From Geminocystis sp. NIES-3708 (GTDB lineage Bacteria; Cyanobacteriota; Cyanobacteriia; Cyanobacteriales; Cyanobacteriaceae): a stretch of DNA of 64,000 bases. Positions within the stretch are counted from its first letter, which is position 1. Each line of letters opens with the position of its first letter. The stretch lies in contig NZ_AP014815.1 of NCBI RefSeq assembly GCF_001548095.1, positions 2,169,656-2,233,655 of the forward strand. Direction: 5' to 3'. Below the pieces are notes generated by a model. It searched no databases, was not told the DNA's origin, and worked only from the letters and a program-made list of their open reading frames with translations. Below are positions 33,492 through 48,041 of this stretch, piece after piece. The translations under genes were made by a program, and so were the position numbers.

Positions 33492-33787
33492 TCAATTATT
33501 CCACTTATTAAAAGAAATTTTTTGCTTTTCTTTGAGATTAAAAACATCAGGATTAACCAATTCAATTTTCCCTTCCTCAATACGCCAAACATTATCAGCA
33601 ATATCAACTAAATCACTAGCATCATGAGTAACAATCAATAAAGTCCAATGTTGTTTTAATCTTGATAATAAATTAACTAATTGTTCTTTCATTAACCAGT
33701 CTAAACCAGCCGTTGGCTCATCTAATAATAAAATATTCGGCTGACGAATTAACTGCACAGCTAAAGATAATCGTCGCTGTTGTCCTC
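33492..33787 (-). pseudogene. Displaced native 3' end of the CbiO-like ABC ATPase gene
   Basis: Open frame matching the last ~95 codons of the intact ATPase at 55601-56281 from the GGQQRR signature to the stop. It lacks Walker A and any promoter or ribosome site. It ends in KISFNKWNN, whereas the intact gene ends in KISLDKW. The difference shows that this is the original chromosomal 3' end, cut off when the element inserted and supplied its own version. At the 5' side the match stops abruptly at 33787, which marks the left element boundary. Confidence 0.9.
33514..33787. repeat. attL: left copy of the 274-bp direct repeat flanking the element
   Basis: Matches 55617-55890 base for base except 33525 (C) versus 55628 (T); 33526-33787 is a 262-bp exact match. 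Outside, the sequences diverge at once on the element side (ACGGTA here, CACTAA there) and gradually on the gene 3' side. It covers the 3' third of the ABC ATPase gene. Confidence 0.93.
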
Positions 33788-33832
33788 ACGGTATTTTAAT
33801 GAGGTTTATTCTGTTTAATTTAATAAGGTATA

Positions 33833-33852
33833 TTTAAGCCATTTTTAAGCCA
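33833..33852. promoter_or_regulatory. Left-end candidate integrase arm sites (two TTTAAGCCA)
   Basis: TTTAAGCCA occurs at 33833-33841 and again at 33844-33852, an 11-bp pitch. The same 9-mer occurs at the right end near the integrase gene (55555-55563, and inverted at 55580-55588). Placement near both termini fits arm-type binding sites. Confidence 0.6.
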
Positions 33853-34004
33853 CTAACATCCTAGCATATGTGTCTGTGGTTATCAAGAAATATTTAATTT
33901 TTTAGTAAAAATAATATTAATTAGTAATAATAATTAGTAGTCAATAATTAGGGGATAAGATATAATAATAATAGGTAAAATTTAAGATTAAGGAATACTT
34001 AATA

Positions 34005-34208
34005 ATGAGTGATAATACTATGGTTATTGAACTTGAGGAAAAAGTTGCTGATTATGCTTTTCAGATTAGGGATATGATTAATGAGTTGAATAATAATGAA
34101 AATTTAGATAAAGATTTACTTTTTATGTTTGATGATATAGCAGGAGAAGAAATCAGGATATACCAAAGATTATTTAAAGTATCCGAGGCTTCGGGTAATC
34201 CCCCCTGA
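34005..34208 (+). CDS. Small acidic hypothetical protein
   Basis: 67 aa, predicted mostly helical (LEEKVADYAFQIRDMINELN) and acidic. Not recognised. A TATAAT at 33961-33966 lies 38 bp upstream and AAGGA precedes the ATG by 11 bases. It is the first gene inside the left end and points inward. Confidence 0.5.
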   Translation: MSDNTMVIELEEKVADYAFQIRDMINELNNNENLDKDLLFMFDDIAGEEIRIYQRLFKVSEASGNPP

Positions 34209-34269
34209 GCTTGTGTTAGTAGCTTAGGGTAGCTGGTGTACATTTTTTCTGGTTTTTATTGCAGGGAAA

Positions 34270-34491
34270 TTAAAGGTAAGGTTCAGAGTCATCTAGGGTG
34301 ATTGATAAGCTATAGTCCTCCTCGTCATTATCTGTAATGTCTGATATTCTGTAAAGTAATTTATCGATAATCTGTAAAGTGCTGGTGACTTCCTTAAAGT
34401 TTGTAAATCCTATACTAGAGCTTCTGATAAGTTTCTTGAGCAATACTAAGCCTTTTTCGAGGTCTTCTGTAAGTAAAGTTATGGTATCCAT
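34270..34491 (-). CDS. Small hypothetical protein
   Basis: 73 aa, helical and acidic at the C-terminus, not recognised. Its ATG directly abuts the stop codon of the Zn-HTH gene upstream (34492), so the two are co-translated. Confidence 0.5.
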   Translation of the reverse strand: MDTITLLTEDLEKGLVLLKKLIRSSSIGFTNFKEVTSTLQIIDKLLYRISDITDNDEEDYSLSITLDDSEPYL

Positions 34492-34983
34492 TTATTTTAG
34501 GTATTCATTGATTTCTTCGTTAATTTCAGGAAGAATTGAGGGATTGATAAAGCTATAACTACACTTACTGATTGTGTTCAGTAAATTATTAATTGAAGTT
34601 GATAGGACTGATTCTTCTTTCATGGTACGGGTAATCTTGGTTAGAGCTATTTGCCTTTGGATGGAGTGTACACACTCTTTGATTAAGTCCCGTACCAGAG
34701 TCTCTGTATTATCTACGTTAATCTCTGGTAGTAGAGTATCGATGTTTTCAGGATTAAAGTCTGCTGTAATTTCCTCTACTTCTTGTAAAAGGTGGTATCT
34801 TCTGTGGGTAGCTAATTTACTGGTGGAGGTGAAAAAGTTAAAAGATTGACACATTTCTTTGATTTTGTCTGCCCTTTCCCCTTTGATTAGTAGGTGGTCA
34901 ATTCTGTCAAGTAAAATTAACCCGTCACCTCCCTGTTTAGCTAATGCACATATCTCACATTTATCTGACCGTTTTCCTACCAT
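34492..34983 (-). CDS. CxxC...HxxxH zinc/HTH protein of phage type
   Basis: 163 aa. The N-terminus has CEIC (Cys9, Cys12) followed about 48 residues later by HRRYH (His60, His64), with a helix-turn-helix-like segment between. The pattern C-x2-C, helix, G, I, then S-x2-L-x2-H-R-x2-H-L is common in small phage DNA-binding proteins, including some small-terminase-like proteins. The C-terminal 90 residues are helical. The start codon lies inside a copy of the 27-bp TGGTAG motif. A terminase role is possible but no large terminase is present. Confidence 0.5.
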   Translation of the reverse strand: MVGKRSDKCEICALAKQGGDGLILLDRIDHLLIKGERADKIKEMCQSFNFFTSTSKLATHRRYHLLQEVEEITADFNPENIDTLLPEINVDNTETLVRDLIKECVHSIQRQIALTKITRTMKEESVLSTSINNLLNTISKCSYSFINPSILPEINEEINEYLK

Positions 34984-35003
34984 TTACTTTTAATTACTAC
35001 CAT
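34977..35003 (-). repeat. 27-bp TGGTAG motif, copy 1
   Basis: On the minus strand: ATGGTAGTAATTA followed by AAAGTAAATGGTAG. It is identical over 27 bp to copy 2 at 41333-41359. It overlaps the start codon of the gene ending at 34492. TGGTAG units are 20 bp apart. Confidence 0.85.
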
Positions 35004-35342
35004 AATATAATATGAACTAGGAATGAGCGAGATTACCTTAATCTGTACAAGGGTTGGTAAAGTTGTAAGAGTTGATGGTGTAAGGCTCAAAAATTATATT
35101 TAAGATTTTCTTTGAGTCTCCATGTATAAAAGCAGTTAATCATATATATTACTCTATAGTTATACAGTTATACAATGATTAATCTCTATATATCAGGAAA
35201 ATAGGGAAGTGAGGAAGTGTCTGGGAGAATTGCAAGTAATTTAAGGGTACTATCGCCCAATACTATTGTATAGAATTTTTTTGTTAAGTTTAATTTTGCC
35301 CTCCTGTTTGGGGGTTTTTTTTCTATTTACCCTGTCACTCTA
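35004..35342. other. Regulatory leader of the giant gene
   Basis: About 340 bp without a gene. It contains the direct repeats TATAGTTATACAGTTATAC near 35155-35175, which may hold a -10 box, and ends in a terminator-like hairpin (see separate entry). No Shine-Dalgarno sequence is obvious before the ATG at 35343. Confidence 0.5.
35299..35322 (+). terminator. Terminator-like hairpin 20 bp before the giant gene
   Basis: CCTCC pairs with GGGGG (one T-G wobble) across a 5-nt loop and is followed by eight T. It lies between the likely promoter and the start codon, so it would stop transcription unless antiterminated. A similar hairpin precedes the SLOG gene. Confidence 0.65.
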
Positions 35343-38300
35343 ATGAATCAAAGAATAGTGTTGTTTAAAGCCCTTAGAGAGTATAAAGAAACTATCCTTA
35401 AAGGTGTAGCTCTGAATAGGTTAAGTACTCAAGAACTAGAAAATATACACCAATATATTAAGGCTAATGAGGGGAGTATTAGGGAAAATATAAAGATTGA
35501 GAAAAAGAATATTGATAGCCTGATAAATAGGAATAAGCTACTAAAACAAAGGTCTGATTTACAGAAAAAGACTTTTAACCTTGAAGTAACTCAAGGAGAT
35601 TTACTAGAGAAATATTTAGGTAATCAGCAAGAAATAAGGGAAAAGAAAAGAGATTTAGTGTTACAGCAAGGGGCTGTTGGTGGTAAAACCTCAACAACAC
35701 TGAATGGCTCGGTCATGTTTGTGAGGGAATTGGAGAAAATCAGGTTAGATGCCTTCAGAGAATTACGGCAACTACAGGGATTAAGAAAAGGTAGTATAAA
35801 TGAAACAATAGGTAAGGAGTCAGATAAGGTTAAGCCGTTACAGGAAAATATAAAGGTAATTATTGATAAGTTATCGAGCCAAGTTTTAGATAAACAGAAG
35901 ATTAAGGAAGAGATAATAAGACAGGAAGCAAAGAATTATACTACCAGATTAATGTTAGAAATACCAAAATCTATTAGAGATGGTTTTCAGGGTATAATTA
36001 ATAATAACAATAATAATATTTTAGGTGGCAATAATCTTAGTAATATTCAGTCTGCTTATCAAGGGTTTGGGGAAAATATTAAGGGGGTATATGAGAAATT
36101 AGCTACTATTAATTTTCTTAATAAATCAGGTATAACTAATCAAAATACTGAGGTAATTAAGGGGTTTTTAGGGGATAATGTTGGTAAATTATTTCAGGAC
36201 TCTATAAAGTCTGTTTTACAGGATATTAAACAGGAGATAAAAGGCTTTTTTAATGCACTAAAAGAATCAATTAATAATCTTAATAATAGTATTCAAAATA
36301 AGTTACCAAGAGCTTACCCTGATATAGTAAGAGAACTTAATAATATTCAGAAGGATAGGGATAAAAGTAAGGAAAATACTAGAAATGAGATAGAGAAATT
36401 AACTGTTAGTAAGTCTATCTTAGGGGTTGATAATATCCTGAATAAACTAGAGCAAAGGGTTAATAATTCTGTGGATAATCCTGACCCTTTCGCTAGGGTA
36501 AATGATACTATTGCTACAGTTATTAATGGGGTAAAATCTGGTATAATTGATAAACAAATAGCATCTCTAATTTTAAAGGATAAAGCAGAGGAAAATTTAA
36601 CTAAAATCAGTGAGAAAGGGTCTGTCTTAAGATTTATTGATGGTATTGTAAATGATTCTAGGGATTTGGTTAATGGGGGTAATGATAGGGTAAATGAGGT
36701 AAATAAAACTGTTAGATATTCTGATAAGGAAACAGGGAAATATCAGGGGATAATTGAGACTTTAAATAATCAAAAAGTTAAGGCAATTGTCGATAATGAT
36801 ATTAAATTATTACAGTCTGTAAATCTTGCTATTACTCAAACTGAAGATGCTATTAATTCCCTTGAGTTTAGTAGAAAAGATGCGATTGCAAAATTCAAAG
36901 CTAGTTTTGCTGATATTGATAATGATTACTTAAATATTTACACTAAAACTCTTGATAGTAATTTTGAGAATACTAAGGAAATAATTAGTAATCAGTCTGA
37001 TAGTTTCTTTGCTAATAGAAGAATACTTGAGCTAGAGTTAGAGAAAACTAGGGAGTCTGCTACTGCTAAGATTGATTTTATTGATAGTAAAATTGCTGAC
37101 ATAATTTCTGCTCCTGTACCTACTGATAAAGCATCGATGGAGACTGACAGGGAAGAAAGAAAGATAAAAATTGCTAAATTGGAGTTTGATAAACAACAAC
37201 TCGAAAGGTCTGTTAGTAGTGTTGAGGATAAATTAAAAAATTTAGGTGATTTATTTGGTAAGGTTTTTAGAGAAATTGGTAATAGTGTTACGGATTCTAT
37301 TAAGGGCTTTTTTGATGGTATTATTGATGGAAGAGATAATGCTTTAGATGCTATTCGTGATATTCCTAAACTAATTCAAAAAATACTGGTACGCAATCTC
37401 ATTGATAGGTTTATTGCTCCTTTCTTTAAGCCTTTTAGTGAGCCTGATAAAACTAAGGTAGCATTGCAGAAGTCGGATGTACCTTCTTTGGACTTTGATA
37501 CGGTAGGGATAAAGTTAGATAGACTTATACTTGAATTATCAGAGAACTACTCGAAACAATCTGATGTTGTGGCGAACCAGTTTGATAGTGCTGTCAGTAG
37601 TATGGAGCAATCTACCACAGAGTTATTGGAGAAGGTAGAAAAGATAAAGATTGATTTTCCCTTTGAGGAGTTGGATAAATTTTATAGGGACTTACTGGAT
37701 AAATTAGCTAATACTGTAAACCTTGAAACAGTTAATAGTTCTATTGTAGCTATTGAAGGTATCCTTAAGGGTATTAGTGGTAAATTAGATAAATTAGTAG
37801 GAAATAAGAGTAATTATAGTATTAATACTGAAAATGAGAAACTCAAGACTATAAATCAGGAAATAAAGAATAATATTAGTAAAAATCAGGGAAATGTTAC
37901 TACTTCAAATAATATCAATAATAATAACCCTAATAACCCCGAACTTGACGAGAGTGCGAATGATTCATCTAAATTAGATTCTGATATGCAATGGTATATT
38001 GACCAAGTAAATTTAGAACGAAAACAGAAAAAGGAAGAGGAGAATTTAAAGGAAATAGGTAAGGATTCCTTAGAGATAGGATTGTCAGGGGTTTTAGGAA
38101 GTCTGTTATTGGGGTTAGTAAATAAACTCAAAAAGGATAAGGATAAAAAAGATAAGGATGATGATGACGATAATAGTACTGGCGGTGAACAGGAAGGGGA
38201 GTCTTTAAATATTGATGACACTATACAAGAATTACTGGAAATTGCTTCTCAGTTAGAGGACTTATTCACTGACAATGAGATGGAGGGCATAAGACGGGCT

Positions 38301-41300
38301 GTAAGAAATAGAAATATACCGAAAATCATTAGAATTATCCGCCACCGTGCTAATGAAAAAGGAGAGGGTAGAACTGTAGATGACCAACTAAAGGATATGG
38401 GGTTATCTTTCTTTAAATCTCCTGAAGGTGTATCTGGTTTGTCCTCTAATATATTAGGTGAGCAAGGATTGACAGAGCTTTATAGTGTTTTAGTTACCCT
38501 CAGTAGTACCTTATTGAGTACTAATAGTTTATTGCAGACTACTAACAGTTTGTTACAAAATCTGAATGTAAGTGATAATACTTCTAACTTACCTTTATCA
38601 GTTAATCAAGGGGGTATAAAGTCTTCTTTTAGTGACATTTATAATCCTAATAGTAGCATTAATAGAGCTTTCTCAACTTCTAATGGTTCGGTAAATCCCT
38701 CTCAAGGAGTCTCTGATACTACTAAAATACCTTTTACTAACCCTTCTAAAGTACCTGTAGCTAATACCCCTAAAGTAAACCCGAATACTCCTCAATATAA
38801 TAGTTTAGGTCAACAAATTCCTAATGTTGTTTATGAGCAGTTAATAAATGCCCCTGAAGGTTCTACCACTAGATTAAAGGTTGGTAAGGACTTTAAATAT
38901 TTCATTAGGACTGCTAAAAATGTTGCTCAGACTTCGGTAAATTCCAAATACACTCCTACGGGTTCTACTTTGCAATATACTGTAGCTCTTAATAAACAAG
39001 GGTTGCCTATTCTTACTAATGCTGGTATGCAGTTTGTACCTACTAATCCTACTGCTAATAACCCTAAACCAGTAAACAATGAAAATAAGGGTAATATGTC
39101 TGTTACCTCTAATACTCCTGCTGTTAATTCTGTGGGTAAGGTATTAGCTAATGTGATGACGGCTGATAATAAATTCTGGTCTTGGTTAGCTAATGGTATC
39201 TCGAGTAATAAAACTGCTAGTTCTGTTGAAGCATGGTTAAGGGTGGATGGTAATGCAGAGAAAATACAAAAGGCTGGTCTAACAATAGGGTCTATTTTAG
39301 CTTTGGTAAAATCTGGGGGATTAACTGGTCTTTTAGGTACAGGGATGAAAGGTGTAGGGGCTTTAGGACTCTTAAAGGGTTTATTTGGGTTTAATGATGG
39401 TGGTACTGTAGGTGGTTATGGTTTAGTTAATGCGGCACTTACCCCTAATGAGTTAGTTATCCCTGCTAGTCAAGCTAAAACTATTGGTTATGATAATTTA
39501 GAGTTAATCAATAATCTCCATAAAGGTAATGTTTTCTCTGGGGGTGGTAAGGTTAAAGGTGGTAATTCCTACTTAGGTGATACTATCCCTGCTTTACTTG
39601 AAGGGGGTAGTTTTGTTGTTAATAATACTACTGCTGATTTATTGGCGAACCATGTTGATAATAAGTTTATGGGGGGGATATTTGGTAAACAAGACTACTC
39701 CAAATATAATGATACTAACCTTTTTGGCACTAAGGGTTTAATGCCCTTTATTGGTGGTTTGGGTACTTTAGGTTTGCAGTTATGGGGGATTATGAACCCT
39801 GCCCCTGACCCTAAGAAAGCTAAGAAGTTACAGTATAAAAGAATTAAAGCCTTTGCGATGCTTAATGAGGTAGAAAAATCTGAAGGGGCATATCTAAAGG
39901 ATAAGGACGGTAATCCTACTTACTGGCAAACTCGTAATGAAGGGGGTATTATCCAGAGACTAAATGAGGGGGGAGAAGTTTTTTCTAATGTTTCTGATAT
40001 TGAAAAAACTATTACCAAGAATACTCCTGAAAAACCTAAAACTTGGTTAGATTATTTACCTATGGTTGCTATGACGGGTTTAAGTTTTTTAGCTGGTAAG
40101 AAAAAAGACCCTAATCAAGAGCAAGAAAGAATAGCTGAAAAAGAAAGAATTAAATCATTAACAGAGTTTGGAAATGACCCATTTTTAGCCAATAAAAGAA
40201 TAACTAATTGGATGAAAAAAAGAGGGGATATTTTAGCTGTAACTAAAGGGTTATTATCAAGGAAAGATGTTAAGGATTATAGTAAAATAAATAAGAGAAA
40301 TATAGGGGGTATAATAGATTATTTACCTGATAATATTAAGAGTTTACCTAATCCTAATTTATTTAGTGATAACTTAGCTAAAGGTAGAATATTTAAAGGT
40401 TCTGGTTTGCTTAAGGGATGGGGTAATAGTAATTTAAGGGATGTAATCCCTGCTCAGTTAAAGGCTGGTGATTACGTGGTAAATGCTGATTCTACCCGAA
40501 TTTTAAGAAATAATAATCCTAAATTATACAGTAAATTAACTAAACTAAATTCAGGGGGTATGTTTGGGGTTAATCCTAATTTTTCAGATACTAAAGGAGT
40601 TATAAATATAGATAATCCTATTGATTTAACTCCTGTATCTTTATGGGGTAATACTAAAAAATTCTTTAGGGGAATTAAACAAAAATCAGGTAATTTTGAT
40701 AACAATAAAATAGTTAAAGATTTTTATAAAAATATCAAAAAGTCTGCTGAAAATTCTGTAATTGAAACAAAAAATCTGAGTAAGAATATTAGAAAGTCTG
40801 TTGAAGAGGTAACAGAAGCTAATAAGTCATTTAATCTGGGAAATTTGGGGGGTAAGGAGTTAACAAGATTTATGATGCCTGAGATGATGGGTAAATCTGA
40901 GAGTTGGGGGTTAGGGGATCAGGTAAGTAACTTTAATTACACTGATACTAATGGGTTGAGGGATGTAGGGCTAAATATAGATAATTTACCTCAAAGTTTG
41001 GGGATGGATTCTTTAAAAATGTACTCTAATGACTCGGAAAGAATTACTAATAATATTAAAGGTATTGAGTCTGTTCCTAATTCTGTTGGTTTAGCTATGG
41101 ACAAGATACCTGATAGTTTTGCCCGTGCTTTTAATGATTCTAATATGACTCCTCAAGAAATTACAGTAGATTACAATGTTAAACGGATTAATAACGTTGA
41201 TTATGTGTCGAAGGAAGAATTTATGGCAGGTATTAATTACGCTTCTCAAGCAGGGGCAAATATTATTCAAAATAAACTTAAATTTAACCCTAATTACCGT

Positions 41301-41318
41301 AAAAATTTAGGCTTTTAA
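35343..41318 (+). CDS. Giant tape-measure-like protein
   Basis: 1991 aa, rich in Asn, Lys and Ile. Residues 1-640 are largely predicted coiled coil. About residues 645-700 contain a segment typical of tail tape measures (IKGFFDGIIDGRDNALDAI, then IQKILVRNLIDRFIAPFF). The C-terminal third has three copies of a GG-x-V/L-x-G ... P-A-x-L-x-x-G-x-x-V box (about residues 1350, 1400 and 1685, for example DTIPALLEGGSFVV and DVIPAQLKAGDYVV), which also occurs at tape-measure C-termini. Hydrophobic stretches near 909-931, 1310-1348 and 1567-1585 fit membrane or channel insertion. It is the only structural-type phage gene seen. Alternative: a surface or toxin-like giant protein that reuses these modules. 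Confidence 0.7.
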   Translation: MNQRIVLFKALREYKETILKGVALNRLSTQELENIHQYIKANEGSIRENIKIEKKNIDSLINRNKLLKQRSDLQKKTFNLEVTQGDLLEKYLGNQQEIREKKRDLVLQQGAVGGKTSTTLNGSVMFVRELEKIRLDAFRELRQLQGLRKGSINETIGKESDKVKPLQENIKVIIDKLSSQVLDKQKIKEEIIRQEAKNYTTRLMLEIPKSIRDGFQGIINNNNNNILGGNNLSNIQSAYQGFGENIKGVYEKLATINFLNKSGITNQNTEVIKGFLGDNVGKLFQDSIKSVLQDIKQEIKGFFNALKESINNLNNSIQNKLPRAYPDIVRELNNIQKDRDKSKENTRNEIEKLTVSKSILGVDNILNKLEQRVNNSVDNPDPFARVNDTIATVINGVKSGIIDKQIASLILKDKAEENLTKISEKGSVLRFIDGIVNDSRDLVNGGNDRVNEVNKTVRYSDKETGKYQGIIETLNNQKVKAIVDNDIKLLQSVNLAITQTEDAINSLEFSRKDAIAKFKASFADIDNDYLNIYTKTLDSNFENTKEIISNQSDSFFANRRILELELEKTRESATAKIDFIDSKIADIISAPVPTDKASMETDREERKIKIAKLEFDKQQLERSVSSVEDKLKNLGDLFGKVFREIGNSVTDSIKGFFDGIIDGRDNALDAIRDIPKLIQKILVRNLIDRFIAPFFKPFSEPDKTKVALQKSDVPSLDFDTVGIKLDRLILELSENYSKQSDVVANQFDSAVSSMEQSTTELLEKVEKIKIDFPFEELDKFYRDLLDKLANTVNLETVNSSIVAIEGILKGISGKLDKLVGNKSNYSINTENEKLKTINQEIKNNISKNQGNVTTSNNINNNNPNNPELDESANDSSKLDSDMQWYIDQVNLERKQKKEEENLKEIGKDSLEIGLSGVLGSLLLGLVNKLKKDKDKKDKDDDDDNSTGGEQEGESLNIDDTIQELLEIASQLEDLFTDNEMEGIRRAVRNRNIPKIIRIIRHRANEKGEGRTVDDQLKDMGLSFFKSPEGVSGLSSNILGEQGLTELYSVLVTLSSTLLSTNSLLQTTNSLLQNLNVSDNTSNLPLSVNQGGIKSSFSDIYNPNSSINRAFSTSNGSVNPSQGVSDTTKIPFTNPSKVPVANTPKVNPNTPQYNSLGQQIPNVVYEQLINAPEGSTTRLKVGKDFKYFIRTAKNVAQTSVNSKYTPTGSTLQYTVALNKQGLPILTNAGMQFVPTNPTANNPKPVNNENKGNMSVTSNTPAVNSVGKVLANVMTADNKFWSWLANGISSNKTASSVEAWLRVDGNAEKIQKAGLTIGSILALVKSGGLTGLLGTGMKGVGALGLLKGLFGFNDGGTVGGYGLVNAALTPNELVIPASQAKTIGYDNLELINNLHKGNVFSGGGKVKGGNSYLGDTIPALLEGGSFVVNNTTADLLANHVDNKFMGGIFGKQDYSKYNDTNLFGTKGLMPFIGGLGTLGLQLWGIMNPAPDPKKAKKLQYKRIKAFAMLNEVEKSEGAYLKDKDGNPTYWQTRNEGGIIQRLNEGGEVFSNVSDIEKTITKNTPEKPKTWLDYLPMVAMTGLSFLAGKKKDPNQEQERIAEKERIKSLTEFGNDPFLANKRITNWMKKRGDILAVTKGLLSRKDVKDYSKINKRNIGGIIDYLPDNIKSLPNPNLFSDNLAKGRIFKGSGLLKGWGNSNLRDVIPAQLKAGDYVVNADSTRILRNNNPKLYSKLTKLNSGGMFGVNPNFSDTKGVINIDNPIDLTPVSLWGNTKKFFRGIKQKSGNFDNNKIVKDFYKNIKKSAENSVIETKNLSKNIRKSVEEVTEANKSFNLGNLGGKELTRFMMPEMMGKSESWGLGDQVSNFNYTDTNGLRDVGLNIDNLPQSLGMDSLKMYSNDSERITNNIKGIESVPNSVGLAMDKIPDSFARAFNDSNMTPQEITVDYNVKRINNVDYVSKEEFMAGINYASQAGANIIQNKLKFNPNYRKNLGF

Positions 41319-41332
41319 GATTCGTGGTAGCT

Positions 41333-41359
41333 ATGGTAGTAATTAAAAGTAAATGGTAG
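41333..41359 (+). repeat. 27-bp TGGTAG motif, copy 2
   Basis: Same 27-mer as copy 1, on the plus strand, 15 bp after the giant gene. An additional TGGTAG precedes it at 41325-41330. Confidence 0.85.
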
Positions 41360-41364
41360 TTACT

Positions 41365-41390
41365 AAAAAACCCTGTTGAAGTGGCAGGGT
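41365..41390 (-). terminator. Intrinsic terminator for leftward transcripts
   Basis: ACCCTG/CAGGGT stem (6 bp, 9-nt loop) which on the minus strand is followed by TTTTTT. It would end the leftward operon of 41484-41717 and beyond, protecting the giant gene from antisense transcription. Confidence 0.75.
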
Positions 41391-41446
41391 AATAAATAAT
41401 AGTATTCACTTAGTTTAACAAGACAGTATTAGGGTGGGCGATTTGT

Positions 41447-41478
41447 TTGTTAATTGTTAATTGTTAATTGTTAATTAC
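41447..41478. repeat. STRR heptamer array (TTAATTG)
   Basis: Four tandem TTGTTAA heptamers inside the element, similar to chromosomal arrays at 58051. Shorter runs occur at 41761 and 47090. Confidence 0.75.
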
Positions 41479-41483
41479 TGACG

Positions 41484-41717
41484 CTAGAAATACTTGATAT
41501 TATGGGTTTTAGTGCCTATTATTTGGTCTTCTAAAAGGTAAAAATTATACCAAAAATTTCTGGCACTGACCTTTAATTTATAGTTTAAATCTCCTAATAC
41601 TTTAGCTGTAAGTATTGATAATTTATGGTATTCTTTGCTTTTTACTGTGTAGTTAGCGTACATGAATAATACTGAGATAATGGTTAAGCCGATGATGGAG
41701 TTTATAATTTCTAACAT
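41484..41717 (-). CDS. Small membrane protein
   Basis: 77 aa with a single N-terminal hydrophobic segment (IINSIIGLTIISVLFMYAN, residues 4-22) and a basic, Tyr- and Lys-rich remainder. Not recognised. Its position at the end of the leftward operon and single membrane span could suit a phage-type membrane accessory, but no function can be assigned. Confidence 0.5.
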   Translation of the reverse strand: MLEIINSIIGLTIISVLFMYANYTVKSKEYHKLSILTAKVLGDLNYKLKVSARNFWYNFYLLEDQIIGTKTHNIKYF

Positions 41718-41786
41718 TTTGATTATCTTATTTATGTGTAGTATTTGAGAATGTATTGAATGTTAATTGTTAATTGTCTTAGCTGA

Positions 41787-42107
41787 TTAAGGAATTAACT
41801 CTACTCTGGTACGGTTATGGTTGCGTATGCCTTGAGTTAGTTTTATGTGACCTTCTGGCACTATACAAGGGATTGAAATGCTAAATCCTAAGTCTTCTAC
41901 GTTTCTTACTAAAATACTTTGTTTTATAGTTACTGACCATGTGTATATAAATTCACTGGGTAATTTATCGAACCATACCTCCGCTACAAAACCTGTATAA
42001 CTTCTGGTTGATTCTCGCCAATAATATTCTTTAGCTCCTGATTCTTGAGCTATTATTGCAATTAAGGGATAAGGTACGTTTAATCTTTCTTTAACTAACT
42101 GTGTCAT
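41787..42107 (-). CDS. Hypothetical protein
   Basis: 106 aa, beta-strand-rich by eye (YTGFVAEVWFDKL, FIYTWSVTIKQSILV, FSISIPCIVPEGHIKL). No family recognised. Located between the structured intergenic region and the small membrane protein, same direction. Confidence 0.5.
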   Translation of the reverse strand: MTQLVKERLNVPYPLIAIIAQESGAKEYYWRESTRSYTGFVAEVWFDKLPSEFIYTWSVTIKQSILVRNVEDLGFSISIPCIVPEGHIKLTQGIRNHNRTRVELIP

Positions 42108-42464
42108 GATTTTTACCTACTAAAAGACAGCTTCTTTTCACCCGTCCTTTTTTAATCCGTGTACTTTGATATGTGTGCAATTTCGGTAAAAAAAATCGGA
42201 GTGTAGCCGTTACTACTGTTTTGGCAAGTAGAGCTAACTATTGCGGCGGAACGGAGTCGATAAAAAATGATGAAATAGTCACACCACTGTGAGGGTATAA
42301 TAGAAAAGCTGTAGTACTATGCCTACACGGGTTCGAGCGAACGTAGAGAGCCAGTGCCTAGCGGCGGAGAGCGACACCATTTATGATTTTTACAGATATT
42401 ATTGAGTGGGGCTAACTTTAGGCTTTTCTTTTCTCTTAGAAAAGACACGGTAAATTAATGGTAA
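42108..42464. other. GC-richer structured intergenic region, candidate small RNA
   Basis: 357 bp without a gene. It has higher GC than its surroundings and several short hairpins (GTAG/CTAC near 42312-42327; GTTC-GAGC-GAAC near 42334-42346). Two related GCGGCGGA blocks occur near 42244 and 42363. TATAAT at 42296-42301 could start a plus-strand transcript and the CTTTTCT/AGAAAAG hairpin near 42424-42445 could end it. A non-coding RNA or a strand-specific origin are both possible. Confidence 0.35.
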
Positions 42465-43742
42465 TTACTTATTCCTCATGGCTTTTAACCAGTTAGCAAT
42501 CTCTCCCTTAGCTTTAGGATTTACAGGTACTTCTTCGGCATCCTTTACGGTATAGGTTTTGTAGATTTTTCCTTCAGCATCGGTGGCAATATCTATTTTT
42601 AATGGTTCGCCTTCACTGCTTTTTATTTCCTTGAGTTCTTGGGGTTCTGAGAGGTAAGTATCTTGTTGGTATATAGTAATAGATTGTTCAGGGTTTAATG
42701 GCTTTAGGGCGGTTAATCGTGCCATTGTCTCTTGTTGCTGTTGCTCTGAGATGATACAACCTAAATTCAGTCTCTCCTTAATATTCTCTGCTTTGGCTAA
42801 AAACTCTGCTTGGTATTGTTCCCATTTTATCGGTAATTTAACAGGGTCATTGCGGAAGTAACTTAAGACATTTGCTTTTGTCTCATAGATGTCAGAATCA
42901 GGATATTTTATTAACCATTTTTGGGCTAACCAGTTATGAAAGTTAGGGTCAAGTTTGCCGTTGATGTTCCATACTCCCTCTGGTAGCCACTGCCAATTAA
43001 CGGACTGTACAGAGCTATTGATGGGGGTGAGGGTATGTTTACTCATTAACTGATTTAATGGCACTAATCCTACCTTTTTATCTTTAGTGTCTGAGGGATA
43101 ATCATTTATACTACTGCTCGGAATATTTGCCTTAATGATGGTTTGCTGGTAATCTTCTGTATTTTCTTTATTTTCTTGGTCAATAGAACTGTATTGCTCT
43201 ATTAATTGATTTTCTTCTTCTTGCAATTCTTTAAAAATGTTCTCTATTTCTTTCTCTTGTGCTTCGCTCTCTGAATAAGTATGATTAGTCTGAATAGTCT
43301 TTAAGTCTAAGGGCTTCTGAGATATATATATATCAATGCTTTCAGAGTCTGAACACGATCCTATTGTCGTTTGGGGCGATCCTGCTGTCGCTGTCACGAT
43401 CTTACTGTCGCTATAACGATCCTGTTGTCGGGTAGGCGATCCTAATGTCGCTAGTTCATCAGTATTTACTATGATGTCATTTTTAAGGTTATTGGTTTTA
43501 TACTCAAACTCAGTGATTTTGTACTCAATTAATTTTAAGGCTTTTAGCTTTTTTATAGTTCTTTGGGCTGTCCTTTGAGTAATCTGTAAGTCATTGCTTA
43601 TCTGTGCTGTTCTTATTCGCTTATAGGTGTCTGTAAATGGGTTATTAGCTTTAAGGTACAGAAATATTAATACTTCATTGGCGGTTAATTGTTCCCTAAG
43701 CTCTAATAATGTCTCAGTTGTTAATCTGTAGAATTTGCTCAT
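42465..43742 (-). CDS. Replication initiator-like winged-helix protein (lambda O-like layout)
   Basis: 425 aa. Residues 1-80 form a winged-helix/MarR-type DNA-binding domain (LTANEVLIFLYLKANNP, AQISNDLQITQRTAQRTIKKL, LIEYKI). Residues about 98-129 are a linker encoded by five DNA iterons. After a Glu/Gln-rich segment, the C-terminal part (WLPEGVWNINGKLDPNFHNW, LAQKWLIKYPDSDI, NDPVKLPIKWEQYQAEFL) resembles segments of cyanobacterial phage and plasmid replication proteins. The order of DNA-binding domain, in-gene iterons, then C-terminal interaction domain parallels lambda O. Initiator function is inferred. Confidence 0.65.
   Translation of the reverse strand: MSKFYRLTTETLLELREQLTANEVLIFLYLKANNPFTDTYKRIRTAQISNDLQITQRTAQRTIKKLKALKLIEYKITEFEYKTNNLKNDIIVNTDELATLGSPTRQQDRYSDSKIVTATAGSPQTTIGSCSDSESIDIYISQKPLDLKTIQTNHTYSESEAQEKEIENIFKELQEEENQLIEQYSSIDQENKENTEDYQQTIIKANIPSSSINDYPSDTKDKKVGLVPLNQLMSKHTLTPINSSVQSVNWQWLPEGVWNINGKLDPNFHNWLAQKWLIKYPDSDIYETKANVLSYFRNDPVKLPIKWEQYQAEFLAKAENIKERLNLGCIISEQQQQETMARLTALKPLNPEQSITIYQQDTYLSEPQELKEIKSSEGEPLKIDIATDAEGKIYKTYTVKDAEEVPVNPKAKGEIANWLKAMRNK
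43321..43334. other. AT tract next to iterons, candidate DNA unwinding element
   Basis: GATATATATATATC lies 21 bp from the first iteron, on the side that is downstream in the initiator gene. An easily melted AT run beside iterons is the normal organisation of replication origins such as lambda ori. Confidence 0.5.
43356..43450 (-). repeat. Five iterons inside the initiator gene (candidate origin)
   Basis: On the plus strand the units are CGATCCTATTGTCG (43356), CGATCCTGCTGTCG (43377), CGATCTTACTGTCG (43397), CGATCCTGTTGTCG (43417) and CGATCCTAATGTCG (43437). Spacings are 21, 20, 20 and 20 bp, two helical turns. Because 20 is not a multiple of 3, successive copies are read in different frames and give unrelated peptides, so selection acts on DNA rather than on protein. 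Confidence 0.88.
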
Positions 43743-43826
43743 AATCGTTACAATGTAATTATGTTAAGGATTTATGGTTAATTTGTGGTTAGCTGTGAAG
43801 CCTTTTTTCTAGTTTTGTATTATTAA

Positions 43827-43849
43827 AGGGGCTTTTTACACCCCTCTTT
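43827..43849. terminator. Hairpin between the Gp157-like and initiator genes
   Basis: AGGGG/CCCCT stem with a 9-nt loop and a T-rich flank on the plus strand (CTTTTG). On the minus strand it would lie between the Gp157-like stop and the initiator start and may act as an attenuator. Confidence 0.5.
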
Positions 43850-43867
43850 TGTTTAACTTTTGTTGTC

Positions 43868-44419
43868 TTATTTTACGCTAAGATAAGTAGATTTTTCCCC
43901 TAATTTACCATATCGTAAAGCCTCTGTTTTTCCTGCCTTAACATCTTCTTTTAATTGTTTTTTATCTATTTCTATTGTTATTTTTTGATATTTTTCAGGG
44001 TAATTATTAGGGTTAACTTTATCATTAAGTATTAACGGAGCGATCGATGCTTTTTTGATGGATAAATTAAATTTATTTGTTCTTAGTTTATCTACTCCTA
44101 TTTTTTCTAAATGTTGCTTAAGGTATTCTTGTAACCATTCGATTGTTTTCTCGTCTTTGCGTACCAGTTTTGTAAGTCTGTCTGCTTCGGCTTTCCTGAT
44201 TTCTAACCATCTTTTTCTTGATTGTATTAGGGATAGGATAGAATCAATCTTTCCCTCAAAGTCTTCTGCTGTCTCTTTTGCTTCTGATAGTAACTCTAAG
44301 TATTCTAAGTGTAAATCAGCAGGTATATCTACCCCTTCAAGGTTTTCTATTGTTTCCTCTAATTCCTCTAATTTACTGGTTAATTCATAGAGTTTATATG
44401 TGCCTTTAGTTTCTGTCAT
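43868..44419 (-). CDS. Siphovirus Gp157-like protein
   Basis: 183 aa. A long N-terminal coiled coil (KLYELTSKLEELEETIENLE and on to about residue 110) includes SILSLIQSRKRWLEIRKAEADRL, followed by a small C-terminal beta domain (RTNKFNLSIKKASI, ITIEIDKKQLKEDVKAG). This matches the Gp157 family first seen in Streptococcus thermophilus siphophages, found in early replication/recombination modules. Its location between ssb and the initiator fits. The exact role is unknown; over-expression of an S. thermophilus homologue gave phage resistance. Confidence 0.75.
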   Translation of the reverse strand: MTETKGTYKLYELTSKLEELEETIENLEGVDIPADLHLEYLELLSEAKETAEDFEGKIDSILSLIQSRKRWLEIRKAEADRLTKLVRKDEKTIEWLQEYLKQHLEKIGVDKLRTNKFNLSIKKASIAPLILNDKVNPNNYPEKYQKITIEIDKKQLKEDVKAGKTEALRYGKLGEKSTYLSVK

Positions 44420-44423
44420 ATAG

Positions 44424-44451
44424 TTGGTAGTAATTTAAAAGTAAATGGTAG
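44424..44451 (+). repeat. TGGTAG motif, copy 3
   Basis: TTGGTAGTAATTTAAAAG then TAAATGGTAG, a 28-bp variant with one extra T, directly upstream of the Gp157-like start codon (opposite orientation to the gene). Followed by a GAGGG-rich segment also seen after copy 4. Confidence 0.8.
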
Positions 44452-44565
44452 ATAATAGGTGAGGGCGGTTAAATACCTCAGATGTGAGGGAGTTTCTTCC
44501 TTTCTTTGATGAGTTCGCTCTTCTAAATCCTGTTTTAAAATCTTTGCTTGTCATGTTATTTTTGC

Positions 44566-44603
44566 TTGGTAGTAATTTGGTAGTAATTAATAGTAATTAG
44601 TAG
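44566..44603 (+). repeat. TGGTAG motif, copy 4 (extended)
   Basis: Runs of TTGGTAGTAATT, TGGTAGTAATTAATAG and TAATTAGTAG form a more degenerate, longer copy just downstream of ssb. The following GAGGGCAGTTAAACCCTC can fold into a hairpin (GAGGG/CCCTC), a probable ssb terminator. Confidence 0.7.
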
Positions 44604-44639
44604 ATGAGGGCAGTTAAACCCTCTATTAATTTCTCTAAT

Positions 44640-44965
44640 TTACTTTTTTTTTCCTCCTTTATTTTCTGTTTTAGACTTCGGAGATTCTATTTGATTTGCA
44701 TATACAAATAGTCTTGTTTTTTTCTCTCCTTCTTCTGTTTCCCATGAGCTTTGTTCTAGTTTTCCTGATACTATTACATAACTCCCTGAGCTTAAATAGT
44801 TATTAACAAATATTGCTTGATTTCCCCAACATTCACAGGGTATCCATGAGGTTTTTTCCTCTCCTTTTATTACTGAATTTACTGCTACTGAAAAACTAAC
44901 TTTTGTCAAATATTCATGGTAGGTTCTGCACCTATATAACCAGCTATTGTTACTGTATTTATCAT
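44640..44965 (-). CDS. ssb: Single-stranded DNA-binding protein with apparent frameshift
   Basis: OB-fold SSB. From the ATG at 44965 the first frame reads MINTVTIAGYIGAEPT, a normal SSB N-terminus, then hits a stop (MNI*). The rest continues in another frame from 44909: TKVSFSVAVNSVIKGEEKTS, then WIPCECWGNQA and VIVSGKLEQSSWE. One extra base in the short A-run near 44919 would join the halves into ~108 aa. Either a sequencing error, a real mutation or a slippery site explains it. The tail is basic (GGKKK) rather than the acidic DDDIPF-type tip of housekeeping SSB. Confidence 0.8.
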
Positions 44966-44969
44966 TATT

Positions 44970-44992
44970 GGTATTTCCCTTTTAACTTGATT
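44970..44992 (-). promoter_or_regulatory. Shared 5' leader motif, ssb copy
   Basis: On the minus strand, AATCAAGTTAAAAGGG then AAATACC, ending five bases before the ssb ATG. Nearly the same leader precedes the SWIM gene at 47672 and occurs at 45721-45741. Confidence 0.7.
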
Positions 44993-45061
44993 AATTTGCA
45001 TAACTTAGGTAAGTATTAAGGCTTTTTTCTCTCTCTTAATCTTTCCTTTTGCTATATTTTT

Positions 45062-45105
45062 ATTATACTCTATATTTTATTAAATAGCAAGTAAAATATA
45101 TGCTA
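45062..45105 (-). promoter_or_regulatory. ssb promoter with 26-bp operator
   Basis: On the minus strand: -35 TTGCTA (45085-45090), 17-bp spacer, -10 TATAAT (45062-45067). The -35 lies within a 26-bp element (45080-45105) that recurs exactly, in opposite orientation, at 47739-47764. Its core TAGCA...TGCTA is an inverted repeat, so it may bind a dimeric regulator. Confidence 0.75.
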
Positions 45106-45124
45106 ATTAATATTTTGTTTATGC

Positions 45125-45130
45125 TATAAT
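45125..45130 (+). promoter_or_regulatory. -10 box for the gene at 45162
   Basis: TATAAT with 31 bp to the ATG. No good -35 box at 17 bp; the nearby operator may mediate control of both directions. Confidence 0.5.
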
Positions 45131-45161
45131 AAGGAAAAGATAGTATAGATTAATTTAATTT

Positions 45162-45674
45162 ATGAGCAATAATTCTGATATTCAGGTAATTAATAAAGAC
45201 TTGGTAAATGTTCCTTTAAAGTTTAATTTATTAGAAGATAATGACATCGAACAAGCTAGTATTGTTTTTGATGCTATGAGACAATATGTTAAACGGTATT
45301 TAAAAGAAAAAGTAGATTATGGCACGATTCCTTATTGTGGTAATAAAGATGTTTTATTTAAGGCTGGTGCAGAGAAATTAATTAGATTATTTAAACTTCG
45401 CCCTACCTTTGATTTAATTGATAAAATTGTAGATTATGATAAGGATTTATTTCATTATCATTATCGTTGTAGTTTGTTTCGTTATGGTGATTTAGTTGGT
45501 CAATGTGATGGTCTTGCTAATAGTCGTGAAAAGAAGTTTGTTAAGCAAATATTAGCTAAAGATTATACTATTGTTAATACTATTTGTAAGATGGCACAAA
45601 AAAGAAGTCTTGTGGGTAGTGTGCTTATAGTCTGTGGTGCTTCTGAATATTTTACTCAAGATTTAGAGGATTAG
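45162..45674 (+). CDS. Phage/plasmid-type protein with KMAxKRxxV motif
   Basis: 170 aa. Features: an N-terminal helical region (QASIVFDAMRQYVKRYLKEK), DYGTIPYCGNKDVLFKAGAEKL, and a C-terminal NTICKMAQKRSLVGSVL followed by SEYFTQDLED. The block GxGxKxxLxKxGAEKL plus N-T-x-x-K-M-A-x-K-R-x-x-V and FTQD(L)ED is shared by many phage/plasmid proteins found near recombination genes. A role in single-strand annealing or replication has been guessed for such proteins; function remains unproven. It is divergent from ssb, sharing its operator region. Confidence 0.6.
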   Translation: MSNNSDIQVINKDLVNVPLKFNLLEDNDIEQASIVFDAMRQYVKRYLKEKVDYGTIPYCGNKDVLFKAGAEKLIRLFKLRPTFDLIDKIVDYDKDLFHYHYRCSLFRYGDLVGQCDGLANSREKKFVKQILAKDYTIVNTICKMAQKRSLVGSVLIVCGASEYFTQDLED

Positions 45675-45850
45675 GGAATAAAAGAGTAGTCAGTAATTTT
45701 TTTACTTCTACTCTGGTTCAAATCAAGTTAAAAGAAATACCTATGTGTCGGTTGTTCTTCTGATTATATGGTATCACTTTAAGAAGTTGTTAAGATAGAA
45801 TATGTTAGATTTTTCTTATTATTTTAAAGATTTTTATATGGGGTTATTTT
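45675..45850. promoter_or_regulatory. Intergenic leader copy with mini-ORF MCRLFF
   Basis: AATCAAGTTAAAAGAAATAC (45721-45740) repeats the leader seen before ssb and the SWIM gene. It is followed at 45743-45763 by ATG and a six-codon frame MCRLFF then TGA. Either the remnant of a lost gene, or a leader peptide controlling the downstream 45851 gene. Confidence 0.5.
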
Positions 45851-46195
45851 ATGTCTGTTCGTAAAAGAGGTAATGTGTTACCTAATGAATATAAAGAAAA
45901 AGCTCTTTCTAATGGTTTGGCATTAACTACGGTTTATGCACGGTTAAAAAGGGGGTGGAATATTGATGAAGCTGTTTCTATTCAGCCCACTGAGAAAACA
46001 AGTACTCATGAATTAAAAAGAGATAAGGGCTGGTTGGTAGCAAATAGGGCTAAAGGTTCATCGATCACTTTTGCTATTTATCAGGATTTAGAAGATTTAT
46101 TTAATAAGGCTTTGCAAGAGTCTGGGGTTACTAAAAGTCAGTTTGTTGCTGATGCTGTAGAGCAATATTTGTTAAAATGGCAATCTAATAATTAA
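45851..46195 (+). CDS. HTH plus ribbon-helix-helix DNA-binding protein
   Basis: 114 aa with two small modules. Residues 8-42 (LALTTVYARLKRGWNIDEAV) match a short phage helix-turn-helix often seen as xYxRLKRGWSxExAL. Residues 65-110 (SITFAIYQDLEDLFNKALQE, SGVTKSQFVADAVEQYL) are a ribbon-helix-helix. A transcription regulator of the element is likely; it is a candidate to bind the 26-bp operator. Confidence 0.65.
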   Translation: MSVRKRGNVLPNEYKEKALSNGLALTTVYARLKRGWNIDEAVSIQPTEKTSTHELKRDKGWLVANRAKGSSITFAIYQDLEDLFNKALQESGVTKSQFVADAVEQYLLKWQSNN

Positions 46196-46212
46196 GGATT
46201 TAGATAAAAAGT

Positions 46213-46374
46213 ATGGATTCCGACAAAGTTATTATCGTAGATTTTTCTAAGTCTGTCAGAAAAAATACTACTAAAACTTACAAAGAAAACCCTAAAGTCC
46301 TTAATCATCCAATTATTACTGAAAGACGCAGACGCTTAGGGCTAAAGTTAAAGATTAATAAGCAATGGTTTTAG
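46213..46374 (+). CDS. Small basic hypothetical protein
   Basis: 53 aa (starts MDSDKVIIVDFSKSV, ends LGLKLKINKQWF), rich in Lys and Arg with an ITERRRRLGLK segment. Not recognised. It follows the HTH/RHH gene by 17 bp on the same strand and overlaps the stop of the convergent SWIM-like gene by four bases. Good codon character and position support a real gene. Confidence 0.5.
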   Translation: MDSDKVIIVDFSKSVRKNTTKTYKENPKVLNHPIITERRRRLGLKLKINKQWF

Positions 46375-46784
46375 TTCGTTAGGTTCTTGATTACTTGGTG
46401 GTGGTGACAGGTAATAGGGAAGTATCGGAAAAACTGCGGTAATTCCTGTTTTCTTTTCTGTCTTAATCTGAATAATGGACAATTACAAGAATATGGGGTG
46501 ACAGTATAATATTTAGCTTGTTTACCTTTAACAATATAGATATTTTCTCCTACTTGTTTGTAAGGTAATTGGTAGGCTTTGGCTTGGGTATAGAGCATTA
46601 GAAACTCTGCATAATCTTTATAACTGATAATTCCTGATAGGTTAGTCCACAGTCCTGTAAACCATAAATCAAATTTAAGATCTTGGTAACGATAATTATA
46701 ATGACTACGATCAAGGTGGCATAGGGCTTTATCAATAAGGTTAGGGGTGAAGTGCTGTGATATTAATTGCTGTGATGGATTCAT
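46371..46784 (-). CDS. SWIM-like zinc-finger protein 1
   Basis: 137 aa. The C-terminal half carries YSCNCPLFRL followed by ITCHHHQVI: a C-x-C ... C-x-H zinc motif of SWIM type, with an insert of basic residues (RLRQKRKQELPQFF). The preceding VGENIYIVKGKQAKYYTVTP is the usual SWIM beta hairpin. SWIM domains bind DNA or protein, for instance in recombination factors. Paired here with a second SWIM protein in the same operon. Confidence 0.65.
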   Translation of the reverse strand: MNPSQQLISQHFTPNLIDKALCHLDRSHYNYRYQDLKFDLWFTGLWTNLSGIISYKDYAEFLMLYTQAKAYQLPYKQVGENIYIVKGKQAKYYTVTPYSCNCPLFRLRQKRKQELPQFFRYFPITCHHHQVIKNLTN

Positions 46785-46843
46785 GCTTTTTCGTGCCAGT
46801 GGTAAAATGTTCTTTTCTCTGTTAACAGTTAATTGTCTGCTGG

Positions 46844-47056
46844 TTATAATCTGTGATGTTCTAGGTAAAATTCTTGGTCTGTTTGCTGTAAATCTAGTTG
46901 TTTAAAGGCTTGGTTAGGGGTCAATCCTTCCTCGAATAATTCGATATATAATTCTTGGTCATCTTCTAAAAATTCAGGGTAGTGACCGTAATAATTTGTG
47001 AGTAATTCGTCTAGTTCTTCTTGCCATAAAGTGTAGATTTCTTTTGCTTGTCCCAT
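46844..47056 (-). CDS. Small acidic hypothetical protein
   Basis: 70 aa, very acidic, helical (IYTLWQEELDELLTNYYGHY, LYIELFEEGLTPNQAFKQL). Not recognised. It sits between the two SWIM genes in the same direction. Confidence 0.5.
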   Translation of the reverse strand: MGQAKEIYTLWQEELDELLTNYYGHYPEFLEDDQELYIELFEEGLTPNQAFKQLDLQQTDQEFYLEHHRL

Positions 47057-47111
47057 GTCCGTTTAGTTATGTGTAGGTTAAAGGTAGTTAACAGTTAATT
47101 GTCTGTAGTTT

Positions 47112-47672: not shown

Positions 47673-47676
47673 AACT

Positions 47677-47698
47677 GGTATTTCTTTTTTAACTTGAT
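47677..47698 (-). promoter_or_regulatory. Shared 5' leader motif, SWIM-gene copy
   Basis: On the minus strand, ATCAAGTTAAAAAAGAAATA then CC, ending four bases before the ATG at 47672. Same block as at 44970-44992 and 45721-45741. Confidence 0.7.
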
Positions 47699-47738
47699 AA
47701 CTTAATTATAATCCGTTTTAACAAAAATAACAATAGAA

Positions 47739-47782
47739 TAGCATATATTTTACTTGCTATTTAACAGATAAAGAGTTATAAT
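47739..47782 (+). promoter_or_regulatory. Promoter of 47813 gene with 26-bp operator
   Basis: Operator 47739-47764 is the exact reverse complement of 45080-45105. It overlaps -35 TTGCTA (47754-47759); 17 bp later is -10 TATAAT (47777-47782). The relative placement of operator, -35 and -10 is the same as in the ssb promoter. Confidence 0.8.
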
Positions 47783-47812
47783 AGAAATATCAAGTTAAGA
47801 GGATTATCTATT

Positions 47813-48031: not shown

Positions 48032-48041
48032 TTTATTTTCT

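What the first reader, a model, noticed from the sequence alone, without database searches (positions are those of the whole stretch)
35343..41318. Orphan tape-measure-like giant protein in an element without other virion genes
A 1991-aa protein has the coiled-coil body, the membrane-like stretches and three C-terminal GG...P-A-x-L-x-x-G-x-x-V boxes of tape-measure proteins, yet no capsid, portal, tail tube or large terminase gene is seen. It is about a quarter of the element. A satellite that supplies its own tape measure to alter or hijack a helper phage tail, or a new type of delivery or contact protein, would be undescribed to my knowledge.
Basis: inference. Interest (0 to 1): 0.82.

Follow-up and report, generated by a model that had tools for sequence, protein, structure and literature searches.

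The report
Phage-tail ruler in cyanobacterial satellite element
A small mobile DNA element in a cyanobacterium carries one huge gene that looks like the 'ruler' protein setting the length of a virus tail, but none of the recognisable genes needed to build the rest of the virus, as if it fits its own ruler into the tails of another virus, a trick recently shown in cholera bacteria.

Summary
Confirmed: an intact 1991-aa ORF (35343-41318, +) fills 27% of a 22,103-bp integrative element (33788-55890), bounded by a 274-bp repeat (273 identical) at the 3' end of an ABC-ATPase gene. The element has a tyrosine integrase, D5 primase-helicase, SSB, Gp157-like and other phage early genes. In 22 named element ORFs no terminase, portal, capsid or tail-tube family was recognised. 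The whole genome has no Terminase_6N, Phage_portal or Phage_capsid match.

The ORF is most likely a tape measure protein (TMP): its C-terminal GG...PAxLxxG boxes match TMP profiles (E 2e-4; reversed control none), and its weak tblastn hits (29 of 29 phage records, three phage groups) lie on TMP genes. The helical part is poor evidence, since its reversed copy also matches TMPs; the membrane-like stretches are weak.

Best reading: a phage satellite that lends its own TMP to a helper's tail (inferred; helper unknown). This is no longer undescribed: Vibrio PLE satellites build chimeric tails with their own TMP, and cf-PICIs carry putative ones (Nature 2026, PMC12987554). Here the host is a cyanobacterium, the backbone differs and no chaperone or hub gene was seen. 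No second copy was found.

The parts
33788..55890 (.). whole integrative element, 22,103 bp, counting one copy of the repeat
   Evidence: direct repeat plus integrase; lengths
33514..33787 (.). att repeat, outer copy: displaced 3' end of the ABC-ATPase gene
   Evidence: 273 of 274 bases identical to 55617-55890; joining the flanks gives one open ABC reading frame of 228 aa
55617..55890 (.). att repeat, inner copy: replacement 3' end brought by the element
34005..34208 (+). 67-aa ORF, unknown
   Evidence: no Pfam match; only weak unknown PHROGs
34270..34491 (-). 73-aa protein conserved in the G133 element
   Evidence: 49% identity over 69 aa, E 4e-20
34492..34983 (-). 163-aa protein with CxxC and a predicted N-terminal helix-turn-helix-like part; conserved in G133; small-terminase role considered, not shown
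   Evidence: 37% identity to G133; model pLDDT 61.6; no significant fold match
34977..35001 (-). 25-nt repeat, copy upstream of the giant gene
   Evidence: exact copy of 41335-41359 in opposite orientation
35343..41318 (+). 1991-aa tape-measure-like protein
39399..39476 (+). degenerate box 1 (GGTVGGYGLVNAALTPNELVIP)
   Evidence: read from the translation
39540..39620 (+). box 2 (GGGKVKGGNSYLGDTIPALLEGGSFVV)
   Evidence: weak TMP profile match phrog_24676, E 0.016
40398..40481 (+). box 3 (GSGLLKGWGNSNLRDVIPAQLKAGDYVV)
   Evidence: TMP profile match phrog_25241, E 2.1e-4 in the C-terminal fragment; aligned with the JF1 phage TMP
41335..41359 (+). 25-nt repeat, copy just downstream of the giant gene
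41484..41717 (-). 77-aa protein with hydrophobic N-terminus, conserved in G133
   Evidence: 42% identity over 64 aa, E 5e-15
41787..42107 (-). 106-aa protein, unknown
   Evidence: no family above threshold
42465..43742 (-). 425-aa protein, weakly like a phage replication initiation protein
   Evidence: phrog_8102, E 1e-4
43868..44419 (-). Siphovirus Gp157 / Mu Gam-like protein
   Evidence: PF05565 E 1e-22; phrog_253 E 6e-22
44640..44909 (-). single-strand DNA-binding protein
   Evidence: PF00436 E 2.6e-17; phrog_44 E 2.7e-21
45162..45674 (+). 170-aa phage early-gene family of unknown function
   Evidence: phrog_10048 E 4e-34; tblastn in 15 phage records
49162..49986 (+). 274-aa protein, ribbon-helix-helix-like N-terminus (recalled reading)
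   Evidence: no Pfam or PHROG match; N-terminal relatives on this genome's own contig C4
51164..53926 (-). D5-type primase-helicase
   Evidence: PF19263, PF08706; phrog_1829 E 1.4e-38
54005..54202 (-). small ribbon-helix-helix protein
   Evidence: PF12651 E 3e-4, just under cut-off
54395..55552 (-). tyrosine integrase
   Evidence: PF00589; phrog_1 E 6e-32; 52% identical to the G133 integrase

Best explanation
The ORF is a tape measure protein carried by a phage satellite. Shown: the element has integrated at a gene end with an intact integrase and a near-identical att repeat, has its own replication genes, and has no recognised packaging or other virion genes. Inferred: when a long-tailed phage infects the cell, the element excises and replicates, its giant protein replaces the helper's tape measure during tail assembly, and its DNA leaves in a particle with a helper capsid and a partly satellite-specified tail. 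From the published rule for PLE11 (95 aa for about 10-15 nm), 1991 aa would set a tail of roughly 210-310 nm. The benefit (compatibility with altered tails, escape from a tail-targeting defence, or interference with the helper) is open.
For: C-terminal boxes match TMP profiles (phrog_25241 E 2.1e-4, phrog_17300 E 0.011), while the reversed C-terminus gave only one unrelated weak hit. All 29 weak phage records lie on TMP genes (6; 23, where five RefSeq copies name the same gene 'endolysin'). Element structure and att repeat. No Terminase_6N, Phage_portal or Phage_capsid match in the whole genome, with controls ringing in 6, 4 and 4 of 14 genomes. Precedent: PLE tmp deletions cut transduction by 96% to 99.9%, and the PLE11 TMP is in its virions (PMC12987554, section 8).
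Against: Full-length searches are empty or unrelated: Pfam E<=0.01 none and E<=10 three unrelated, PHROGs none at E<=0.01, NCBIfam none, PDB two unrelated helical hits (best E 0.0089). The helical fragment's TMP matches (best E 4e-5) are partly compositional: its reversed copy also matches TMPs (E 0.007). The 29 phage records come from only three phage groups and have E 0.1-4. No tail assembly chaperone ORF precedes the gene and no hub protein was seen, unlike PLE11. No helper, no particle, no second copy. The C-terminal model was useless (pLDDT 33).
Confidence: 0.5

Rival explanations
1. A decayed or deleted prophage: head and most tail genes were lost and the tape measure gene happens to remain.
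For: Phage early genes (Gp157, SSB, 170-aa family) of siphophage type are present; only one virion-like gene remains.
Against: The ORF is fully open, the att repeat is 273 of 274 identical, which suggests recent integration, integrase and primase are intact, and the giant gene sits alone on its own strand between two copies of a 25-nt repeat shared with other element genes.
Confidence: 0.18
2. A giant non-virion protein (surface, contact or scaffold) that resembles tape measures in composition and short boxes.
For: Helical-region similarity is partly compositional; hydrophobic stretches are weak; no full-length profile match.
Against: The box region matches TMP profiles in the right orientation only, and phage hits fall on TMP genes.
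Confidence: 0.15
3. An anti-phage device: the element makes a tape measure that poisons or mis-sizes the tails of an infecting phage, protecting the host without being packaged.
For: PLE11's Rta shows that tape measures are a defence target (PMC12987554); satellites often restrict helpers (recalled).
Against: No PADLOC match to the giant protein; no direct evidence.
Confidence: 0.1
4. A complete small virus whose capsid and packaging genes are of unknown families.
For: Several element proteins have no assignment.
Against: The other ORFs of the 22 are nearly all under 280 aa; the larger ones are the 425-aa replication-like protein, the primase and the integrase, which leaves little room for terminase, portal and capsid.
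Confidence: 0.05

Closest known systems
Vibrio cholerae PLE satellites (PLE11, PLE1, PLE4), PMC12987554
   Same: Integrative satellite-type element with its own predicted tape measure and without a full tail gene set.
   Different: PLEs also encode a tail assembly chaperone (PLE11 also a hub protein) and have a known helper, ICP1, with a contractile tail; here neither accessory gene was seen, the helper is unknown, the host is a cyanobacterium, and no relation by sequence was tested.
cf-PICIs with putative tmp genes (PMC12987554, Extended Data Fig. 10 legend)
   Same: Satellite that carries a predicted tape measure.
   Different: cf-PICIs encode capsid, portal and terminase genes (passage of PMC10690885); none was recognised here.
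Tape measure proteins of siphophages (Mycobacterium phage JF1, Streptococcus phage Javan105, Staphylococcus phage PT1-4)
   Same: Long helical protein; box 3 aligns with the JF1 TMP (GEFVVNAAATR... versus GDYVVNADSTR...).
   Different: Those lie in tail operons behind the major tail protein (PT1-4 neighbours are mostly hypothetical); this one stands alone.
Element in genome G133 (same genus)
   Same: Related integrase, 163-aa, 73-aa and 77-aa proteins and two small regulators; its two contigs share a 60-bp identical stretch, likely att.
   Different: DNA polymerase B-like gene instead of the primase in the parts seen; the middle of the element is missing and no relative of the giant gene was found in G133.

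Membership tests
tailed-phage tape measure protein | sequence-profile match to known tape measures | tested here: inconclusive
   C-terminal fragment E 2.1e-4 with clean reversed control; helical fragment E 4e-5 but reversed copy 0.007; full length none
tailed-phage tape measure protein | lies in a tail operon behind tail tube and tail assembly chaperone genes | tested here: not met
   divergent 163-aa gene and about 360 bp without a + strand ORF longer than 26 aa precede it
tailed-phage tape measure protein | incorporated in a phage tail and sets its length | not testable with these tools
   needs particles
phage satellite | integrase and att repeats at a specific site | tested here: met
phage satellite | own replication genes but no full virion gene set | tested here: met
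   on 22 named ORFs; unknown families could hide a gene
phage satellite | mobilised by a helper phage | not testable with these tools
   no helper known; no Terminase_6N, Phage_portal or Phage_capsid match in the own genome
PLE | tmp accompanied by tac | tested here: not met
   no such ORF before the gene; no family match in the 22 ORFs
PLE | homology to PLE genes | not tested
   PLE sequences were not fetched
cf-PICI | own capsid, portal and terminase genes | tested here: not met
   none recognised
complete prophage | terminase, portal, capsid and tail genes | tested here: not met
   same calls; only the tape-measure-like gene

The most novel reading that the evidence does not exclude
A cyanobacterial satellite lineage, unrelated to PLEs and cf-PICIs, has reduced tail hijacking to one gene: a lone giant tape measure, without chaperone, hub or capsid genes, that re-specifies the tail of a passing long-tailed phage to about 210-310 nm.
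Probability: 0.4. Interest if true: 0.72.

Novelty: new variant of a known kind. Interest (0 to 1): 0.52.

Why it matters
Satellite-encoded tape measures were first shown in Vibrio in 2026. A lone tape measure in an unrelated cyanobacterial element would mean that tail takeover arose more than once and can work with a single gene, and it would give a simple system to ask why a satellite needs its own tail ruler. It also offers a handle on the helper: a phage with a tail tube that accepts a roughly 2000-residue ruler.

Tried and rejected
Relatives of the giant protein: no confirmed relative in IMG/VR, in genome contigs, in PLSDB plasmids (no match), or in 388 genomes of the order (2 of 388, the window itself and one 22% match over 127 residues in G086, taken as chance). 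Seven named neighbours searched again at E<=10 gave nothing, and the tool notes that such an empty answer shows nothing by itself. The integrase in genome contigs, the 163-aa alignment in IMG/VR and the G133 163-aa relative in plasmids and phages gave nothing; the integrase alignment in IMG/VR gave three 25% matches that were not followed.

Neighbourhoods: 12 primase hits from 10 genomes (of 161 of 376 genomes with a match) and 20 stretches around integrases from 19 genomes (of 158 of 388 genomes; five of these stretches are under 5.4 kb because the contig ends) were read. None holds an ORF with the tape-measure box, but this is a small, partly truncated sample and the box is a narrow test: the four phage TMPs compared also fail it.

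Small terminase idea for the 163-aa protein: no profile match, low-confidence model, no significant fold match; left open. phrog_2, which I recalled as a terminase family, gave two hits in the own genome (E 1.3e-6 and 1.8e-4) that I read as PhoH-like and UvrB-like ATPases, and it rang in 13 of 14 control genomes, so it says nothing. Other terminase, portal, capsid and tail families were not searched genome-wide. Structure of the C-terminus (pLDDT 33): discarded. Terminator-like site before the gene at 35298: five such sites found against 4.0 expected, and the leader folds no better than shuffles, so chance. Rfam: nothing. PADLOC: two weak hits to the 425-aa protein and one to the 170-aa protein, judged unrelated.

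Literature absence: searches listed no cyanobacterial satellite with a tape measure. The library is partial and holds no separate bioRxiv collection. Of the listed papers only PMC12987554 (abstract, outline, section 8, passages of sections 6 and 9 and a figure legend) and PMC10690885 (passages) were opened.
Full report
What is there. The ORF at 35343-41318 is exactly as described, 1991 aa, no interruption. It sits in an element bounded by a 274-bp direct repeat, 33514-33787 and 55617-55890, with 273 identical bases. The repeat is the 3' end of an ABC-transporter ATPase gene. Joining the flanks gives one open frame of 228 aa, and the present gene, ending in the element's copy, is 226 aa. So the element, 22,103 bp, inserted at a gene end and replaced it, and the near-identity of the repeats suggests that this was recent (inference).

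Gene content. The element carries a tyrosine integrase, a D5 primase-helicase, a Gp157/Gam-like protein, SSB, a 170-aa family found in 15 phage records, a weakly matched replication initiation protein and small regulators. All 22 named ORFs were scanned with Pfam and PHROGs. None matches terminase, portal, capsid or tail tube. Many remain unknown, and smaller ORFs were not scanned. In the whole genome, Terminase_6N, Phage_portal and Phage_capsid gave no match at E<=0.1, while the same searches rang in 6, 4 and 4 of 14 control genomes. So no resident helper of those families was detected; other families were not tested.

Is the giant protein a tape measure? Full-length searches do not say so: Pfam and PHROGs give nothing at E<=0.01, NCBIfam nothing at E<=1, PDB two unrelated helical hits, the better at E 0.0089. 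Ten fragments against PHROGs do. The C-terminal 612 residues match TMP families phrog_25241 (E 2.1e-4) and phrog_17300 (E 0.011) and one unknown family (E 9.6e-4), with the best stretch on box 3. The fragment aa 250-480 matches TMP phrog_4070 (E 4.1e-5), TMP phrog_1272 (E 2.7e-4) and tail protein phrog_1204 (E 2.9e-4). Controls: the reversed C-terminus gave one unrelated hit (E 0.035). The reversed helical fragment still hit TMPs (E 0.0072, 0.014), and two shuffles of it hit none. So the box region is real, order-dependent evidence, and the helical region is weak evidence. tblastn against phages, with loose cut-offs, gave 6 records with the full protein (E 0.1-0.8, helical part) and 23 with the C-terminus (E 1-4, box 3). 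All 29 lie on TMP genes; five RefSeq copies of mycobacteriophages call the same gene endolysin. They come from three phage groups only, so they count as three observations rather than 29. In the JF1 phage the aligned stretch reads GEFVVNAAATRKFLPLLQAINSG against GDYVVNADSTRILRNNNPKLYSKLTKLNSG here (its pairwise E is biased by prior selection). My own probability that it is a tape measure is about 0.8.

Relatives. One genome of the same genus, G133, holds relatives of the 163-aa protein (37%), the 73-aa and 77-aa proteins, the integrase (52%) and two small regulators on two contigs that share a 60-bp identical stretch, so they are probably the two ends of one element (joining is inferred). It has a DNA polymerase B-like gene where ours has the primase. 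The contig stops 363 bp from the start of the 163-aa gene, about where the giant gene would begin; in the window that gap is about 360 bp. A search of G133 for the giant protein found nothing, which cannot decide. In 368 genomes of the order only the window and G133 had the 163-aa protein; in 388 genomes of the class, the window and one doubtful match (E 0.004, inside a 3938-aa frame). So the lineage is rare in what is held.

Regulation. A 25-nt sequence occurs exactly once on each side of the giant gene, in opposite orientation, and twice more with three mismatches before or near other element genes; none is found in the rest of the window and none in 100 shuffles. I read these as regulator sites shared by the giant gene and the early genes (inference).

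How it likely works. The best-supported model is a phage satellite with its own tape measure. Vibrio PLEs do this: their TMP is found in the particles, the helper's TMP is excluded, and deleting tmp cuts transduction by 96% (PLE1), 99% (PLE4) and about 99.9% (PLE11) (PMC12987554, section 8 read in full). The authors add that PLE-like elements and cf-PICIs carry putative tmp genes (passages and figure legend). By their scale, 95 aa for about 10-15 nm, this protein would set a tail of roughly 210-310 nm (my arithmetic; not all of the protein need lie in the tube). What differs: no chaperone before the gene, no hub or capsid gene recognised, and a cyanobacterial host. A lone tape measure needs a compatible chaperone from the helper, which is a weak point of the model.

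Rivals. A decayed prophage is argued against by the open frame, the fresh att repeat and the intact integrase and primase, but it cannot be excluded without a second copy. A giant non-virion protein remains possible because full-length evidence is thin. An anti-phage tape-measure decoy and a virus with unknown capsid genes are less likely. Verdict: an interesting new variant of a kind first shown in 2026, with moderate confidence.

Noticed in passing
G013:C1 about 2438900-2459900 and 2459900-2479000 (L037, L038, L053): Two adjacent elements of about 20 kb in a genome of the same family, each with a related integrase, a peptidoglycan-binding/lysozyme-like protein and several long proteins that look structural. 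In the first, 10 proteins were scanned: an endolysin (phrog_7 E 8.5e-66) and a virion structural protein family (phrog_10356 E 2e-26) were found, while five had no clear match. They may be satellites or viruses of an unknown kind.
   Followed up: partly
G133:C18 (L058) 753-8035: Beside the related element lies a TniB/TnsC-type ATPase (PF05621 E 2.8e-34), TniQ (PF06527 E 1e-9), DNA methyltransferase-like ORFs and ORFs that I read, from recall, as a Cas12k-like gene: perhaps a CRISPR-associated transposon. The last of these ORFs had no Pfam match.
   Followed up: partly
G133:C14 (L067) 6464-9430: A 988-aa DNA polymerase B-like protein (PF00136 E 2e-4, under cut-off; phrog_36870 E 7e-16) in an integrative element with related integrase and small genes.
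   Followed up: partly
G064:C1 about 735080-739980, G146:C66 about 15199-20493, G159:C21 (L089): Very small integrase units: integrase, two small ORFs and a primase-like ORF between host genes (G064, G146), and two integrases 5.7 kb apart, each followed by an 846-aa ORF (G159). They look like minimal integrative elements.
   Followed up: no
window 34977-35001, 41335-41359, 44579-44603, 49128-49152: 25-nt repeat GGTAGTAATTAAAAGTAAATGGTAG, two exact copies flanking the giant gene and two with three mismatches, none elsewhere in the window; two shifted, looser copies at 44427 and 49079.
   Followed up: partly
window 58868-63622: 1584-aa ORF outside the element, read by eye as a nucleotidase/phosphatase-like exoprotein with a long TDP repeat.
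   Followed up: no
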